This document shows, piece by piece, positions 35,412-42,450 of a stretch of 64,000 bases of DNA. The DNA lies in contig NZ_CP109067.1 in NCBI RefSeq assembly GCF_035917335.1, positions 188,501 through 252,500 on the forward strand, read 5' to 3'. Source of the DNA: Micromonospora sp. NBC_01813 (lineage in GTDB: Bacteria; Actinomycetota; Actinomycetes; Mycobacteriales; Micromonosporaceae). The translations under genes and the position numbers were made by a program. A model generated the notes under the pieces. It was not told the DNA's origin. It did not search any database and saw only the letters and a program-made list of their open reading frames with translations. Positions within the stretch are counted from its first letter, which is position 1. Every line of letters starts with the position of its first letter.

Positions 35412-35483
35412 GGGCGCGTAGCTCAGTGGGAGAGCACTCGCCTTACAAGCGAGGGGTCGCAGGTTCGAAACCTGCCGCGCCCA
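35412..35483 (+). tRNA. tRNA-Val (anticodon TAC)
   Basis: A complete 72-nt cloverleaf: acceptor GGGCGCG/CGCGCCC, D arm GCTC-AGTGGGA-GAGC, anticodon stem CTCGC/GCGAG with loop CTTACAA (anticodon TAC, reading GTA), T arm GCAGG-TTCGAAA-CCTGC, discriminator A. CCA is not encoded. It marks the left edge of the accessory block. Confidence 0.97.
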
Positions 35484-35502
35484 CACTCTGACCAGCATGC
35501 AA

Positions 35503-35621: not shown

Positions 35622-35635
35622 CTGGCTTGAGCCAG
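35622..35635. promoter_or_regulatory. Operator palindrome copy 1 (CTGGCT-TG-AGCCAG)
   Basis: A perfect 6+6 inverted repeat preceded by A, the same 15 bases as the copy at 35667-35680. It lies 97 bp before the GntR start. Confidence 0.65.
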
Positions 35636-35666: not shown

Positions 35667-35680
35667 CTGGCTTGAGCCAG
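35667..35680. promoter_or_regulatory. Operator palindrome copy 2 (CTGGCT-TG-AGCCAG)
   Basis: Second identical copy, 45 bp (about four helical turns) from the first and 52 bp before the GntR ATG. Twin sites on the same helical face suggest cooperative binding by the GntR-UTRA or XRE-UTRA protein encoded downstream. Confidence 0.65.
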
Positions 35681-35731
35681 TCGCGGGTAACGTGGAGCGT
35701 GCTGTTGACCCCCAGGGACAGGCGGGCAGAC

Positions 35732-36514
35732 ATGGACGAGCCGACCAGCACAGACAAGCGACCACCCAGCCGTCGGATAGCGGATGACCTACGCCTGAGC
35801 ATCCAGGCGGGGGAGTTGGCACCCGGAGACAAGCTGTCATCCGAGCGGGACCTTGCCGCCCGGTACGGCACGGCACGCAACACCGCCAGGGAAGCGATCA
35901 GCATCCTGCAAGGGGAGGGCCTGGTCGTCGCGCAGCACGGGCGAGGCGTCTACGTCCGCCCCAACCGGCCGCTGATGCGCCTCGGAGCCAACCGCTACTC
36001 CCGACAGCTGCGCAACGAAACGGGACTCTCGCCGTTCCGCATCGAGGTCACGAAACAGGGCCGCGTACCCCGGACCGAATGCCGGTCGGTCACCCGCGAC
36101 ACCCCACCGCCGGACGTCGCCGAACGCCTCGGCGTCGACGAGAACACCGCCACCGTCATCCGGCGGGAGAACTGGTACTTCGCCGATGACGAGCCGGTCC
36201 AGGTCGGCGTGACGTACATCCCCGTCGACGTCGCCGACGGGTCGCCGCTGGCGACTGAGCGGACCCTCGGCGAGGGCAGCATCTACGCGAGGTTCGAAGA
36301 ACTCGGCCACCAGGTCACCCGTATCCGGGAAGAGATCTCGGCCCGGATGCCGTACCACGACGAGTCGACGGGGTTGGGGATGCCGCCCGGCGTCCCGGTC
36401 ATCGAGGTGCTGCACACCAGCTTCGACGAGCAGCACAAGCCGTTCGAGGTCACCAGGTTCGTGATGCGCGGTGACCTGAACGGGCTGGACTACGACATGC
36501 CCGTAGAGGACTGA
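35732..36514 (+). CDS. GntR-family (HutC/UTRA type) transcriptional regulator
   Basis: A 260-residue regulator. A GntR winged helix occupies about residues 10-80 (RIADDLRLSIQAGELAPGDKLSSERDLAARYGTARNTAREAISILQGEGLV) and a UTRA ligand domain about 85-258, with GANRYSRQLRNETGLSPF, VIRRENWYFADDEPVQVGVTYIP, PPGVPVIEVLHTSFDEQ and FEVTRFVMRGD. It probably represses its own operon until a small ligand binds UTRA. Start ATG 35732. The EamA transporter gene follows after 12 bp and then a second UTRA protein. Twin palindromes in the promoter are the likely target. Confidence 0.92.
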   Translation: MDEPTSTDKRPPSRRIADDLRLSIQAGELAPGDKLSSERDLAARYGTARNTAREAISILQGEGLVVAQHGRGVYVRPNRPLMRLGANRYSRQLRNETGLSPFRIEVTKQGRVPRTECRSVTRDTPPPDVAERLGVDENTATVIRRENWYFADDEPVQVGVTYIPVDVADGSPLATERTLGEGSIYARFEELGHQVTRIREEISARMPYHDESTGLGMPPGVPVIEVLHTSFDEQHKPFEVTRFVMRGDLNGLDYDMPVED

Positions 36515-36526
36515 CGGGGCTACCTG

Positions 36527-37453
36527 ATGAGTCGGGGCAGTCTCGTACGGCTGGTGATGCTCGCGTTGCTGTGGGGGTCAGGATTCCTCTGGATCAAGCT
36601 GGCGCTACGCGGCTTCACTCCGGTGCAGATCGTTCTTGTCCGCCTGGCCCTCGGTGCGCTGGTGCTCATCCCCATCGCCCTGCACCGGGGGCTGCGGTTT
36701 CCGGCCGACCGGACGACGTGGGGGCATCTGTTCGTCGCGGCGCTGGTCGCCAATGCGATCCCGTACACCCTGTTCGGGATCGGGGAGCAGACCGTTGACT
36801 CCGGTGTCGCCGGGGTCCTCAACGCCACCACGCCGCTGTGGACAGCGCTGATCGCCTTCGTGGTCGGGACTGACCGCACGGCAACGTGGTCGCGGGGAGC
36901 CGGATTGACCCTCGGCTTCGTCGGCGCGATGGTCATCTTCACGCCGTGGAAGTCGGCCAGCGAGGTCGCCAGTTGGGGAGGGCTGGCCATCCTGGCCGCA
37001 TCTGCCAGCTACGGAATCTCCTACGTCTACATGGGCAAGTTCCTCACCAACCGGGGAATCCCGCCGATCATGCTGTCCGCCGCACAGCTCACTGCAGGAA
37101 CAATCCTGATGATCCTGGCCCTGCCCCTCGGCGGACTGACCGCCCCTGACCTTCGCTTCGACGCGGTGATCAGCCTGCTGATCCTGGGTGTCCTCGGCAC
37201 CGGGGTCGCCTACGTGCTCAACTACCGGCTCATCACCGACGACGGCCCTACCCTGGCATCCACGGTCACGTACCTGCTGCCGGTCGTCGCGGTGGGACTC
37301 GGTTTCCTGGTCGTCAACGAGCAGGTGACAGCATCCATGGTCCTCGGCATGCTCCTCGTCCTGGCGGGCGTCGCGCTGGTACAGCGCCGACCTCAACGGA
37401 GCAAGGTCTCTGATCTCCTGCCACTCGGAAGGAACCGGAATGGTCGTCGTTGA
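36527..37453 (+). CDS. EamA/DMT-superfamily membrane transporter
   Basis: A 308-residue protein with ten predicted membrane helices made of two EamA repeats (LLWGSGFLWIKLALRGFTPVQIVLVR opens the first; a second starts near residue 150). Relatives export amino acids, purines or other metabolites. It lies between two regulators that share UTRA ligand domains, so the regulators and the transporter may recognise the same compound. The C-terminal tail RNRNGRR overlaps the next gene by 14 bp. Confidence 0.9.
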   Translation: MSRGSLVRLVMLALLWGSGFLWIKLALRGFTPVQIVLVRLALGALVLIPIALHRGLRFPADRTTWGHLFVAALVANAIPYTLFGIGEQTVDSGVAGVLNATTPLWTALIAFVVGTDRTATWSRGAGLTLGFVGAMVIFTPWKSASEVASWGGLAILAASASYGISYVYMGKFLTNRGIPPIMLSAAQLTAGTILMILALPLGGLTAPDLRFDAVISLLILGVLGTGVAYVLNYRLITDDGPTLASTVTYLLPVVAVGLGFLVVNEQVTASMVLGMLLVLAGVALVQRRPQRSKVSDLLPLGRNRNGRR

Positions 37454-38387
37454 CCCGGACTTCGTCCGACTGATGCGCAGACTTCGACAGGAACACGGGA
37501 TGTCGTTCCGGGATCTGGCAAAGAAGGCGTACTTCTCACGTTCGTACCTGTGTGAGGTGGAGAACGGCAAGAAACCGCCCAGCCTGCACCTCGCCAAGGC
37601 GCTGGACGTCTGCCTCAACGCCGAAGGTCAGCTCACGCGACTCGTGACCGCCGGTCCCGATGACCAGGAACGTGAATTCCCGTTCCGATCCGCAGCCTCT
37701 GGGGACTGCCCGGACCGCGACGTCGAAGCGTGGCTAACGCGCTCGACGTGGCCAGCTCAGCTGGGCGGATCAACGCCCGTCAGCGCATCCCAATGGGCGC
37801 AAGTCGCGACGATGCTCTACGACGTCTTCGTCCGTAGCCGGCCACCGCTCCTGCGCCTCGGACCAGACCGGTACGCCAACCCTTCCCAACGGGAACGGAA
37901 CCTGACACCGTTCGCTGCCGAGGCAACCATGCAGGGACGCACACCACGTGTCGAATGCCGCGCCGTATCCCGACAGCAAGCGCCGAGCGACGTAGCCGCC
38001 CTGCTCTCCCTGGACCTGGGGGACACCGTCGTTCTCCGAGAGAACCGGTACCTTGTTGACGGCCAACCCGTCCAACTCGGGCATACCTACCTGCCAACGA
38101 GTGTAGTCGGAACATCCACCCTCGCGACCGAACTGAACTTGGGGCCAGGCGGGACGTTCGCTGCCCTCGAAAGACTCGGATACCGGACCGCACGGATCAG
38201 AGAACAGGTCACCACGCGATTCCCGACCCGCGACGAGGCAGAGGCGCTGAAACTCCCGCCCGGTGTACCCGTCATCGTGCTGCTGCACGCCTCCTACGAC
38301 AACGACGGTTTCCCGTTCGAAGCGACCCGCTACATCCTGCGGTCCGACGCGATGGCAGTTCAGTACGTGGCGCAGGTCGCTGCCTGA
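37440..38387 (+). CDS. XRE helix-turn-helix protein fused to a UTRA ligand-binding domain
   Basis: A 315-residue regulator of unusual make-up. Residues about 8-62 are an XRE-type helix-turn-helix (VRLMRRLRQEHGMSFRDLAKKAYFSRSYLCEVENGKKPPS). A linker of some 55 residues follows, and residues about 120-312 form a UTRA domain clearly related to the neighbouring GntR protein: LLRLGPDRYAN, GRTPRVECRAVSR, VVLRENRYLVDGQPVQLGHTYLP, LPPGVPVIVLLHASYDNDGFPFEATRYILRSD. UTRA is normally attached to a GntR winged helix, which is absent. ATG 37440 overlaps the EamA gene by 14 bp, so expression is coupled. Codon use is less GC-biased than in backbone genes. Confidence 0.88.
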   Translation: MVVVDPDFVRLMRRLRQEHGMSFRDLAKKAYFSRSYLCEVENGKKPPSLHLAKALDVCLNAEGQLTRLVTAGPDDQEREFPFRSAASGDCPDRDVEAWLTRSTWPAQLGGSTPVSASQWAQVATMLYDVFVRSRPPLLRLGPDRYANPSQRERNLTPFAAEATMQGRTPRVECRAVSRQQAPSDVAALLSLDLGDTVVLRENRYLVDGQPVQLGHTYLPTSVVGTSTLATELNLGPGGTFAALERLGYRTARIREQVTTRFPTRDEAEALKLPPGVPVIVLLHASYDNDGFPFEATRYILRSDAMAVQYVAQVAA

Positions 38388-38837: not shown

Positions 38838-39038
38838 TCAACGAGGATCATGACGGCGGCTCGGTTGAGCCCGGCAGGCAGCGCGTCCGCGACGCGGATC
38901 TCGACGCCGCGCAGCGCGGCGTGTGCCCCGGCCTCGCGGGACACCATCCAGGTGTCCTGAGCCTGCTGCCCCTGCGGCCGGCCCTCCCTGCGGGTCTCCG
39001 TCGCTGCCTGACGGGACACCGGTCCGTCAGAGACGGGC
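38838..39038. other. Unassigned stretch, possible coding remnant on the minus strand
   Basis: No plus-strand gene is supported. On the minus strand a frame with ATG near 39040 reads MPVSDGPVSRQAATETRREG and later ALRGVEIRVADALPAGLNRA with good third-position GC, but it continues into the antisense of the 38511-38837 gene without a stop. It may be a truncated gene left by rearrangement. Confidence 0.3.
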
Positions 39039-39431
39039 ATGGGACTTTTCCGGAGGGCGCCTCGGTCGCCGTTTCCCGACGACATGCTGCGGTGGCTGGA
39101 TGTCGTCGGCCGGTCCTGGCTGGATCCTCAGCGCGGCGGCATCGACGACTGGAGCCGATTCGGGCAACTCTACGACTACGCGACTCGTGACCGCGAAGGC
39201 TTCCTCGCCGAACTGCAGGCGCTCGTGGCGGGAGCTCGAGGCGGCTTCGCGACGCTTGGTGCCGCACGCGTGGTGTGGGAGCTGTACGACGGTGACGCCC
39301 TTCGTATCCCCTCGGCCTGGTCGCTGATCGACGCGGGGATCGAGTTCAAGCGCTCGCGTGGTCTGCCGGCCATCATGCTGACGGGCTACGAGTCGCAGCG
39401 TCTCGCCCAGATCCGAAGCGACGGCGGCTGA
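39039..39431 (+). CDS. Hypothetical protein, 130 residues
   Basis: A soluble protein with no signal or membrane segment. Notable parts are FPDDMLRWLDVVGRSWLDPQ, WSRFGQLYDYATRDREGFLAEL and FATLGAARVVWELYDGD; it looks helical. I do not recognise the family. ATG 39039 is taken as the start, though the ribosome site is poor. It sits 62 bp before another orphan gene in the accessory block. Confidence 0.55.
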   Translation: MGLFRRAPRSPFPDDMLRWLDVVGRSWLDPQRGGIDDWSRFGQLYDYATRDREGFLAELQALVAGARGGFATLGAARVVWELYDGDALRIPSAWSLIDAGIEFKRSRGLPAIMLTGYESQRLAQIRSDGG

Positions 39432-39493
39432 ATCCGCCCAGCATCCGTTTCTGCAACGACTGTCAATGTGTCTATCGGTTTAGGAGCCCCGCT

Positions 39494-39904
39494 GTGGAAA
39501 GCTTGCTGTGTATTGCGCTTGTCGTTGGTCCGATCGCCATCCTTGTCTGGCAGTTTGTCGAGACGCGGGCTGCGGTGGCGACAACGAGGGTCGAGACAGC
39601 GTACGGTCCTGCGCAGGCCGCGCAGATCGTCCATGATGCGTTCACCGGTCCGCGTGCCGTGCTGTGGACCACGGCGAACGGACCGGGCATGATCAACATG
39701 CGTCGGCGCGGAATCCGTGGCGGCATCACCATGTCGATCGACATCGAGCCCCGCCCGGGTGGCGGTTGCAACGTGGATATGTGGGCGTCACACACCGTTG
39801 TCTACCTTGGTGCATTGGCCAACTTCGCCGGCGTCGTCAACCGGCGCAAGAAGGCCATCGCACGCCACCTCACGATGGAGGTCGATGCTCCGCAATCCGC
39901 ATAG
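39494..39904 (+). CDS. Hypothetical membrane-anchored protein, 136 residues
   Basis: An N-terminal helix (LLCIALVVGPIAILVWQFV) would anchor a roughly 110-residue domain with TRVETAYGPAQAAQIVHDAF, TMSIDIEPRPGGGCNVDMW and a C-terminal VVNRRKKAIARHL. The beta-rich middle resembles small stress or SRPBCC-like folds, but I cannot assign it. GTG 39494 starts right at the membrane helix. Confidence 0.55.
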   Translation: MESLLCIALVVGPIAILVWQFVETRAAVATTRVETAYGPAQAAQIVHDAFTGPRAVLWTTANGPGMINMRRRGIRGGITMSIDIEPRPGGGCNVDMWASHTVVYLGALANFAGVVNRRKKAIARHLTMEVDAPQSA

Positions 39905-40913: not shown

Positions 40914-41064
40914 TCCGCGGCGACTGGTCCGCGAAGGCAGGGCCGGGGATGGGAGTACGGACGGCCAGCACATGGTGACTGGTCGGCGACTCGATCGATC
41001 CGCTCGCCAGGTCACTCACGGCGTAGTCTGCTCGGGCGGATCTCGTCACACAGAGGAGTGTCGT

Positions 41065-42450
41065 ATGAGCGAGGAGAACTGGCTGGCTGCGCGCCTTATC
41101 CCGACGTCGGGGATCAATGGTGCTGAGGAGCAGGAGCGACGTGCGACGTCAGCCTTCCTCGCTGTGTTGAGTTCGGTCCGCGAGTTCGGCAGAGCGTTGA
41201 CCCAGCCGTTCGGTGCGCCGGTTGGTCCGGTGCAGACCTTCATCGAGGTCCCCTTCAAGCTGGGTGACCAGAAGTTCTTTCCGGACGGCTTGATCCGAGT
41301 GGCCCGTGGCCAGCGGCAATGGACCGCGTTGGTCGAGGTGAAGACCGGAGACGGTGAGCTGCGGGCCGAACAGCTCGAGCGCTATCTGGATATCGCCAGG
41401 GACAATGGATTCGACGCACTCATCACGATATCGAACCAGATCCCGCCGGTCCCGGGGCAGCATCCGACACCCGTTGACAAGCGGAAACTCAAAAAGGTCG
41501 CACTCCATCACGTTCCGTGGTCGGAGGTGCTGACTGTGGCGGTGATGCAGAAGGAGTACCGAGGTGTCGCCGACCCGGATCAGTCGTGGATCCTGGGAGA
41601 GCTGATCCGGTATCTGGAACACCCGCGGTCGGGGGCGCTCGAATTCAGCGACATGGGGCCCAGTTGGGTCCCGCTGCGCGACGCGGTCGGTGCTGGGACG
41701 CTGCGCGCCGGTGACGCGGTCGCCACCGACATCGCCGGCAAGTTCGACGCGCTGGTCCGGTTCGCCGGGTTGAAGCTGGGCCGACAACTGGGTACGGAGA
41801 TCATGCCGGCGTTGAGTCGGCGGGAACTGGCCGAGCCGGCGACGCGGACTCAGGCGCTGGTGAGTCAGGTCGCGACGACGGGTGCGCTCACCGCTGGACT
41901 TCGGATTCCAGGGGCAGTCGGTGTGCTTTTCGTGACCGCCGATCTGCGGGCCGGCAAGATAACCTGTCACGTCGATGTGGAAGCGCCGCGTCGAGGTCAG
42001 CCGAGGACCCGGGTCAACTGGCTGGTGCGGCAACTCAAGGACGCGCCGGAGACCACCCGCCTGGAGGCGTTCGCGGCGTACGCGCGGGGTGACGGTAGCG
42101 CCGAGTTGCTGAAAGCGGTGCGGGAGAACCCCGCGCTGCTGGTCGCCGACCACGGTCGGGAGATTAAGTCGTTCCGGGTCGCTTCCGTCTCGACGGCGGG
42201 CACGAAGCGTGGGGTTGGTCGCGGGTCGTTCATCGATTCGCTTCTCAACGCGATCGACTCCTTCTACGAGCAGGTGATCCAGAACCTGAAGGCGTGGACC
42301 CCGGCGCCGCCGAAGATGCGCTCGGTCGAGGACGCGGTCGAGGTCGAGCCGGTCGCACCCGCCCTGGTCTCGACCGCGATTTCCTCCCAGGACGGACCAC
42401 GGATCGGCGCCGACGCGGTCCTGGTCTCCGTGGCGGCGGGAAAGACCTGA
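41065..42450 (+). CDS. PD-(D/E)XK nuclease-fold protein of unknown function
   Basis: A 461-residue protein. Residues about 56-120 carry a restriction-endonuclease-like core: FFPDGLIRV with Asp74, then TALVEVKTG with Glu91 and Lys93, followed by a helix ELRAEQLERYLDIARDNGFDALITISN. The later parts (about 150-400) contain SWILGELIRYLEHPRSGALEF, typical of the actinobacterial relatives I know, and a domain of unknown fold. The relatives I know of are annotated as hypothetical or stress-response proteins. ATG 41065 has GAGGAG about 8 nt upstream. It is a single gene in the accessory block, so it could be a defence or repair factor; no methylase is nearby. Confidence 0.78.
   Translation: MSEENWLAARLIPTSGINGAEEQERRATSAFLAVLSSVREFGRALTQPFGAPVGPVQTFIEVPFKLGDQKFFPDGLIRVARGQRQWTALVEVKTGDGELRAEQLERYLDIARDNGFDALITISNQIPPVPGQHPTPVDKRKLKKVALHHVPWSEVLTVAVMQKEYRGVADPDQSWILGELIRYLEHPRSGALEFSDMGPSWVPLRDAVGAGTLRAGDAVATDIAGKFDALVRFAGLKLGRQLGTEIMPALSRRELAEPATRTQALVSQVATTGALTAGLRIPGAVGVLFVTADLRAGKITCHVDVEAPRRGQPRTRVNWLVRQLKDAPETTRLEAFAAYARGDGSAELLKAVRENPALLVADHGREIKSFRVASVSTAGTKRGVGRGSFIDSLLNAIDSFYEQVIQNLKAWTPAPPKMRSVEDAVEVEPVAPALVSTAISSQDGPRIGADAVLVSVAAGKT

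What the first reader, a model, noticed from the sequence alone, without database searches (positions are those of the whole stretch)
35732..38387. Operon with two UTRA sensors on different DNA-binding heads flanking an EamA transporter
The GntR protein (35732-36514) and the XRE protein (37440-38387) share a clearly homologous UTRA domain (matching LRLG..RY, GR.PR.ECR, REN.Y..D..PVQ.G.TY.P, PPGVPVI..LH.S). In the second protein the GntR winged helix is replaced by an XRE helix-turn-helix. UTRA is known as the ligand domain of HutC-type GntR regulators; an XRE-UTRA protein is outside the usual architectures I know. The gene overlap (14 bp) with the transporter ties all three together. Inference: a domain-swapped duplicate gives two regulators that read the same ligand but different operators, with the transporter moving that ligand.
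Basis: partly seen in the sequence, partly recalled or inferred. Interest (0 to 1): 0.75.

Follow-up and report, generated by a model that had tools for sequence, protein, structure and literature searches.

The report
Head-swapped regulator pair on integrative-element remnant
A soil actinobacterium carries, beside a tRNA gene, a three-gene operon left by a mobile element, in which a duplicated repressor swapped its DNA-binding head for an unrelated one; the swap is real and rare, but what the second protein binds is still unknown.

Summary
35732-36514 is a GntR-UTRA (HutC-type) regulator, 36527-37453 an EamA transporter, and 37440-38387 an XRE helix-turn-helix fused to UTRA (UTRA E=9e-25, HTH_31 E=5e-11). 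No winged helix was found in the linker. The XRE-UTRA proteins form one clade inside the clade of EamA-linked GntR-UTRA, so the head swap followed a duplication; homology starts in the wing strand. It is rare: 11 of 354 genomes of the family, each time directly behind a GntR-UTRA and an EamA gene; none seen outside the family in order, class and phylum samples.

In three relatives it lies between tRNA-derived repeats of 44-95 bp, in two of them with replication and FtsK-like genes. The window copy looks like a remnant 3' of tRNA-Val.

"Same ligand, different operators" is only partly supported. The palindromes go with GntR also where XRE-UTRA is absent, and no separate XRE operator was found. 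In this genus the XRE-UTRA pocket has changed at four positions that GntR-UTRA keeps (nearly) invariant. Within the genus its HTH is under strong purifying selection. It is probably a DNA-binding partner regulator of the element's circuit.

The parts
35412..35484 (+). tRNA-Val (TAC); its 3' half recurs as an attachment-site-like repeat in relatives
   Evidence: ARAGORN; repeats
35622..35635 (.). distal operator-like palindrome CTGGCTTGAGCCAG
   Evidence: conserved upstream of GntR in relatives
35667..35680 (.). proximal operator-like palindrome, 45 bp from the first
35688..35693 (+). TAACGT, a -10-like hexamer 7 bp past the proximal palindrome (by eye; the sigma-70 scan found no promoter)
   Evidence: sequence; one search found none
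35732..36514 (+). GntR/HutC-type regulator: winged helix (res 13-75) + UTRA (res 109-248)
36527..37453 (+). EamA (DMT) transporter, 308 aa
   Evidence: nearest NCBIfam models YedA and 2A78, both below cut-off
37440..37453 (+). 14-bp overlap of transporter and XRE-UTRA genes
37440..38387 (+). XRE-UTRA regulator, 315 aa
37461..37640 (+). XRE helix-turn-helix head (res 8-67)
   Evidence: HTH_31; dN/dS 0.04-0.21 against four genus mates
37653..37784 (+). spacer predicted disordered (res 72-115), weakly constrained
37785..37835 (+). predicted helix res 116-132 (low confidence from 127 on); homology to GntR-UTRA begins at res 127 (37818), aligned with the wing strand
37932..38354 (+). UTRA domain of the XRE-UTRA protein (res 165-305)
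   Evidence: structural matches PhnF and DasR effector domains

Best explanation
The trio is a regulatory module of an actinomycete integrative element, left in the window as a remnant 3' of tRNA-Val. The GntR-UTRA protein is a self-repressor: dimers on two palindromes 45 bp apart hold down GntR-EamA-XRE, and in complete elements also the divergent transfer genes, until an unknown small ligand releases them (inferred by analogy with KorSA, DasR and NagR). Behind the transporter lies a duplicate of that repressor whose winged helix was replaced by an XRE head, joined in the wing strand, so that the whole UTRA and the linker next to it were kept and a spacer of about 45 predicted-disordered residues was added. 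It is probably made from the same message. It still binds DNA (its HTH is strongly constrained within the genus; the target is not known) and uses UTRA as its dimerising domain. In this genus its pocket no longer matches that of its partner, so it probably follows the derepressed state rather than reading the same ligand in the same way. Shown: architecture, duplication, linkage, palindromes, selection, element context in relatives. Inferred: co-transcription, repression, dimerisation, ligand release and any role of XRE-UTRA.
For: Domains. Fold. Join. Tree. Linkage: XRE-UTRA in 11 of 354 family genomes, with EamA and a GntR-UTRA gene directly upstream in 11 of 11 (in one, G169, the GntR head is gone). 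Palindromes; in the own genome the exact palindrome occurs only at this locus. Selection (NG86, window against four genus mates): dN/dS GntR 0.09-0.14, EamA 0.13-0.19, XRE-UTRA 0.28-0.33, its HTH 0.04-0.21. Pocket. Element. UTRA is the dimerisation domain and the mode is called strictly conserved in GntR/HutC (PMC4918961, passages read); KorSA and its homologue SCO3932, GntR/HutC proteins of such elements, bind their own promoters (PMC8584621, passages read).
Against: No DNA-binding or ligand data for any member were found. Two of 11 XRE-UTRA genes are broken (G114 cut short, G169 in-frame TAG), so the gene is dispensable there. Its dN/dS is 2.4-3.3 times that of its partner, and between genera the HTH is looser (0.30-0.37 for window against L043, L044, L046, with saturated dS; 0.14 for L043 against L044). 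The window has no integrase, replication or transfer gene similar to those of the relatives and no exact second copy of 12 bp or more of the tRNA 3' region downstream as far as 46000. In two relatives (G079, G114) the trio lies just outside the repeat-bounded insert. In 7 of 11 trio loci no replication or transfer gene was found nearby.
Confidence: 0.6

Rival explanations
1. One reading: both proteins read the same ligand and control different operators, and EamA moves that ligand.
For: Common ancestry of the UTRA domains. At the two positions where NagR has phosphate-binding arginines, both window proteins have N and Y. Deeper-branching pairs agree at 14 and 13 of 15 pocket positions.
Against: The window pair agrees at 8 of 15, about as much as the rest of the domain (67 of 139); changes R103 to A159, S183 to G238, I184 to T239, Y185 to F240. 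No second operator found. The model adds about 45 disordered residues between head and UTRA, which sits badly with the short-leash allostery proposed for DasR (PMC4918961, passages).
Confidence: 0.2
2. Mixed-dimer antirepressor: XRE-UTRA pairs with GntR-UTRA through UTRA, giving dimers with one winged helix that cannot hold the palindrome, hence positive feedback once the operon is on.
For: UTRA dimerisation mode called strictly conserved (PMC4918961, passages); 11 of 11 linkage to a GntR-UTRA and EamA gene; XRE gene third in the block, overlapping the transporter; UTRA genes without a DNA-binding head exist, one beside a GntR-UTRA gene on plasmid pFRL1.
Against: Does not explain the strong within-genus constraint on the XRE HTH. 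Interfaces were not modelled: no complex prediction was available. No interaction data.
Confidence: 0.3
3. XRE-UTRA is a decaying passenger without function.
For: Broken in 2 of 11 genomes; dN/dS 2.4-3.3 times that of its partner.
Against: HTH dN/dS 0.04-0.21 and whole-protein 0.28-0.33 in four within-genus comparisons with the window; present in 6 of 7 genus members, one of the six truncated; gene overlap with the transporter kept in the intact trio loci.
Confidence: 0.08
4. An ordinary chromosomal metabolite-efflux operon that only happens to sit beside a tRNA gene.
For: No replication or transfer gene was found near 7 of 11 trio loci, the window included; of five GntR-EamA pairs without XRE-UTRA whose 20-kb flanks were fetched none has the transfer gene and one (G297) a weak replication hit.
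Against: Trio inside tRNA-derived repeats in G084, G104, G078 and G060; four different tRNA genes involved (Val, Arg, Ser, Ala); genus mate G093, which has no trio, has a downstream flank (window 39021-39884, 74% identical) about 175 bp from tRNA-Val.
Confidence: 0.12

Closest known systems
HutC subfamily of GntR regulators (NagR, DasR, PhnF)
   Same: UTRA sequence and fold; GntR-UTRA is a full member by domains, with operator-like palindromes at its own promoter
   Different: XRE-UTRA has no winged helix; N and Y stand where NagR has phosphate-binding Arg133 and Arg135
KorSA of pSAM2 and its homologue SCO3932 (PMC8584621, passages read)
   Same: GntR-UTRA regulator of an actinomycete integrative element; KorSA and SCO3932 bind their own promoters
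   Different: Here in one block with an EamA transporter and an XRE-UTRA gene; the SCO3932 motif quoted in the paper is not this palindrome. KorSA's sequence was not compared directly
XRE (HTH_31-like) regulators of about 370-480 aa in the same genomes (L005, L007, L183 and others)
   Same: Head homologous, hhalign E 5e-26 over 79 aa
   Different: Different C-terminal part (looks TPR-like by eye; not tested); an 'AQWAQ' stretch near the join is a weak match only (E 0.048, probability 1.1%)
Actinomycete integrative and conjugative elements (PMC3218068, passages read)
   Same: tRNA 3'-end repeats, integrase, replication protein, FtsK-like gene, GntR or XRE regulators; seen around the trio in relative G084 and, without an integrase found, in G104
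   Different: Window copy has only the regulatory module; the passages read mention GntR and XRE regulators as separate proteins, not XRE fused to UTRA

Membership tests
GntR/HutC regulator (P0001) | GntR winged helix plus UTRA | tested here: met
   GntR E 7.4e-19 and UTRA E 1.8e-28, both above the gathering score
GntR/HutC regulator (P0001) | palindromic operator at own promoter | tested here: inconclusive
   conserved palindromes; binding not testable here
GntR/HutC regulator (P0002) | GntR winged helix | tested here: not met
   no GntR hit in Pfam; none in profile comparison or model; none of the frames with XRE and UTRA gave a GntR hit
GntR/HutC regulator (P0002) | UTRA domain | tested here: met
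   E 9.2e-25; Foldseek best hits PhnF and DasR effector domains
XRE family (P0002) | Cro/C1-type HTH | tested here: met
   HTH_31 43.3 bits and HTH_3 29.6 bits, both above cut-off
Actinomycete integrative element (window copy) | integrase, replication and FtsK-like transfer genes | tested here: not met
   no tblastn hit in the window at 1e-6 with five element proteins
Actinomycete integrative element (G084) | tRNA-derived repeats, tyrosine integrase, replication protein, FtsK-like gene around the trio | tested here: met
   44-bp repeat 17.2 kb apart; Phage_integrase 28.4 bits against a cut-off of 27.1, DnaB + DUF3987. FtsK-like call made on the G104 protein (phrog_1358, E 3.5e-25), to which the G084 protein is 34% identical; Pfam gives neither of the two a hit
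Drug/metabolite exporter YedA (P0003) | NCBIfam equivalog cut-off | tested here: not met
   91.9 bits against 270; EamA membership is met
KorSA-type kor repressor | represses element transfer or replication genes | not testable with these tools
   nearest palindrome 21 bp (L046) and 32 bp (L043) from the start of a divergent small ORF that lies ahead of the transfer gene

The most novel reading that the evidence does not exclude
A natural mixed-head regulator: GntR-UTRA and XRE-UTRA pair through their common UTRA domain into a dimer with one winged helix and one Cro/C1-type helix-turn-helix. It would read a composite site and switch the element, with the EamA exporter setting the level of a small-molecule signal that the element senses itself.
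Probability: 0.12. Interest if true: 0.85.

Novelty: new variant of a known kind. Interest (0 to 1): 0.52.

Why it matters
[quoted passage not shown] XRE-UTRA is a natural case: same UTRA, other head, about 45 more residues, sitting beside a normal paralogue. It allows a direct test of whether UTRA signalling works with any head. It also points to a regulatory module of actinomycete integrative elements that includes a transporter, and so to a possible small-molecule cue for element control.

Tried and rejected
Relict winged helix in the linker: I first read residues 90-125 as a decayed GntR winged helix; rejected by the profile comparison (homology starts at 127), by the model (disordered) and by weak constraint (spacer dN/dS 0.35-0.62 against four genus mates). 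A piece of the XRE donor protein around the QWAQ stretch remains possible but is not significant.

Second operator for XRE-UTRA: none found by repeat search or by reading the upstream regions of relatives (whose window row came out empty through a naming error; corrected). The promoter scan found nothing.

XRE-UTRA elsewhere: none of 151 plasmid records and 7 phage records with hits covers 80% of the query; the viral-contig scan found no relative. In the order (298 genomes), class (394) and phylum (296) samples only the own genome matched from the start of the model. These samples overlap, only the best 5-7 candidates per genome were scored, and E cut-offs were 1e-30 or 1e-25, so rare or divergent fusions could be missed. 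The first scan of genome contigs gave nothing; the second gave two Plantactinospora copies and a Nocardia GntR-UTRA.

Nonomuraea hit H1 is an ordinary GntR-UTRA by its N-terminus. Literature: searches for UTRA with XRE, with domain architecture(s) or with EamA gave no paper but a Staphylococcus survey seen as a listing only; the palindrome letters gave none; the HutC + EamA listing (10 of 31 papers shown) was not followed.

Rows dropped: the tree leaves out UTRA stretches under 140 aa (so the truncated G114 copy) and identical rows. Alignment A1 holds 10 of the 11 XRE-UTRA proteins (G169, with a stop, left out). dN/dS used 8 loci. The pocket table leaves out the truncated L042 and G169 for XRE. 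The 10 comparison loci without XRE-UTRA include 8 with EamA beside GntR and 2 (L055, L056) without. The output was cut; the point that needed it was redone.

Full report
What is there. Three genes run in one direction behind tRNA-Val: GntR-UTRA (35732-36514), EamA (36527-37453) and XRE-UTRA (37440-38387), the last two overlapping by 14 bp. Pfam confirms GntR + UTRA, EamA, and HTH_31/HTH_3 + UTRA, all above cut-off. An AlphaFold2 model of XRE-UTRA from a 10-row alignment (mean pLDDT 73.5, pTM 0.55) shows a helical head (6-70), a low-confidence spacer (72-115), one helix (116-132, low confidence from 127 to 140) and an alpha/beta domain (157-301) whose best PDB matches are the effector domains of PhnF and DasR.

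How the fusion arose. In a tree of 98 UTRA domains the ten XRE-UTRA rows are one clade (99/91), inside a clade of EamA-linked GntR-UTRA and close relatives (100/98). The 11 GntR partners of XRE-UTRA also group together (97/77, below the tool's star). The nearest rows to XRE-UTRA are two headless UTRA genes of another genus (94/62, weak). Profile comparison places the start of homology at residue 127 of P0002 and 71 of P0001, the last strand of the wing. The interdomain linker, which forms the ligand-induced strand in DasR and NagR (PMC4918961 and PMC4333415, passages read), was therefore kept. The head is homologous to the heads of XRE regulators of the same genomes (E 5e-26 over 79 aa).

How common it is. 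A profile search of the 354 held genomes of the family finds XRE-UTRA in 11, from five genera; 33 genomes have any hit at 1e-45. In the own genus it is in 6 of 7, truncated in one of the six. Two carriers are named: Plantactinospora mayteni and P. endophytica. In 11 of 11 an EamA gene and a GntR-UTRA gene lie directly upstream; in G169 the GntR head is missing and XRE-UTRA has an in-frame TAG. No frame in the loci then fetched gave both an XRE and a GntR hit.

Operators. CTGGCTTGAGCCAG-like palindromes (up to two mismatches outside the central two bases) stand within 131 bp upstream of GntR in 20 of 21 loci, two or more in 19 of 21, with a pair 44-46 bp apart in 17 of those 19; the exception with none is L045 (G169), whose GntR head is lost. 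Ten of the 21 loci lack XRE-UTRA (8 with EamA, 2 without), so the palindrome goes with GntR. In the whole own genome the exact palindrome occurs only at these two sites; three further places have one mismatch. A TAACGT hexamer lies 7 bp past the proximal site (by eye); the promoter scan found none.

Selection and pocket. Between the window and four genus mates dN/dS is 0.09-0.14 for GntR, 0.13-0.19 for EamA and 0.28-0.33 for XRE-UTRA; within the latter the HTH has 0.04-0.21, the spacer 0.35-0.62 and UTRA 0.25-0.34. Against more distant loci the HTH is looser (0.30-0.37 for window against L043, L044, L046, dS 1.0-1.8 and so saturated; 0.14 for L043 against L044). Within the genus the head is thus kept as if for DNA binding, while the rest is looser. 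At 15 positions that contact sugar phosphate in NagR (PMC4333415; mapped by hand through the alignment), the 18 GntR-UTRA rows are nearly invariant (at the four changed positions below, one row has L for I). XRE-UTRA agrees with its own partner at 14 and 13 of 15 in L046 and L047, 12 and 11 in Plantactinospora, and 8 or 9 in five members of this genus; the changes in the window are R103 to A159, S183 to G238, I184 to T239 and Y185 to F240, besides conservative ones. N and Y replace the two phosphate-binding arginines in both window proteins, so the ligand is probably not a sugar phosphate bound as in NagR (inference).

Element context. In G084 the trio lies inside a 44-bp tRNA-Ala repeat, 17.2 kb apart, together with a tyrosine integrase, a DnaB/DUF3987 replication protein and a homologue of the FtsK-like gene; in G104 (P. 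endophytica) inside a 66-bp tRNA-Ser repeat, 16.5 kb apart, with replication and FtsK-like genes (no integrase found by similarity to that of G084); in G078 (P. mayteni) inside a 95-bp tRNA-Ser repeat, 6.8 kb apart, without any of these. The FtsK-like name rests on PHROGs (E 3.5e-25); Pfam gives no hit. In G060 a 42-bp copy of the tRNA-Val 3' half (95%) closes a segment of about 3.9 kb holding the trio, and in G034 the trio sits at tRNA-Arg with a 16-bp repeat (weak). In G093, which has no trio, a downstream flank (window 39021-39884, 74% identical) begins about 175 bp from tRNA-Val; other downstream pieces of the window (from about 39945) map elsewhere in genus mates, so the region is a mosaic. 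In G079 and G114 an insert lies between tRNA-Val and the trio, so there the trio is outside the repeats. Replication and transfer genes were found near 4 of 11 trio loci (G104, G084, G169, G079). For the 10 loci without XRE-UTRA, 20-kb flanks were fetched for 7: G255 (no EamA beside its GntR) has the transfer gene and G297 a weak replication hit. In L043 and L046 the nearest palindrome lies 32 and 21 bp from the start of a divergent small ORF ahead of the transfer gene. The GntR-UTRA protein also matches a family of phage-borne proteins over its whole length (phrog_10724, E 5.9e-62). The window copy is therefore best read as a remnant.

How it most likely works. Autorepression by GntR-UTRA is a strong inference from palindrome position and family behaviour (KorSA and SCO3932: PMC8584621, passages). 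XRE-UTRA, probably made from the same message, is most likely a DNA-binding partner regulator; whether it acts as a homodimer or pairs with GntR-UTRA cannot be decided here.

Noticed in passing
L139:5363-6367 (UTRA at its 3' end) and L140:5967-6509: UTRA genes without an XRE or GntR head in two genomes of another genus (G075, G055); no XRE, GntR or EamA hit and no palindrome within the 12-kb loci. They group weakly with XRE-UTRA.
   Followed up: partly
L064:2468-3025: On Streptomyces plasmid pFRL1 a UTRA gene without a detected head follows a GntR-UTRA gene, with an XRE regulator gene further downstream.
   Followed up: no
window 35412-35484 and relatives L040, L042, L229: tRNA-Val is an integration hotspot in this genus: inserts bounded by a copy of its 3' half lie between it and the trio in G079 and G114, and G034 has a further copy of the 3' half 12.6 kb from its tRNA-Val.
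   Followed up: partly
L045:6382-9274: In G169 both regulators are damaged (GntR head missing, in-frame TAG in the XRE head region) while the transporter frame stays open.
   Followed up: partly
L043:5502-5753 and L046:5997-6245: Small divergent ORFs of 83 and 82 aa abut the operator region of two elements; no NCBIfam model above cut-off.
   Followed up: partly
window 40972-42450: 492-aa open reading frame without any Pfam match at E up to 1.
   Followed up: no
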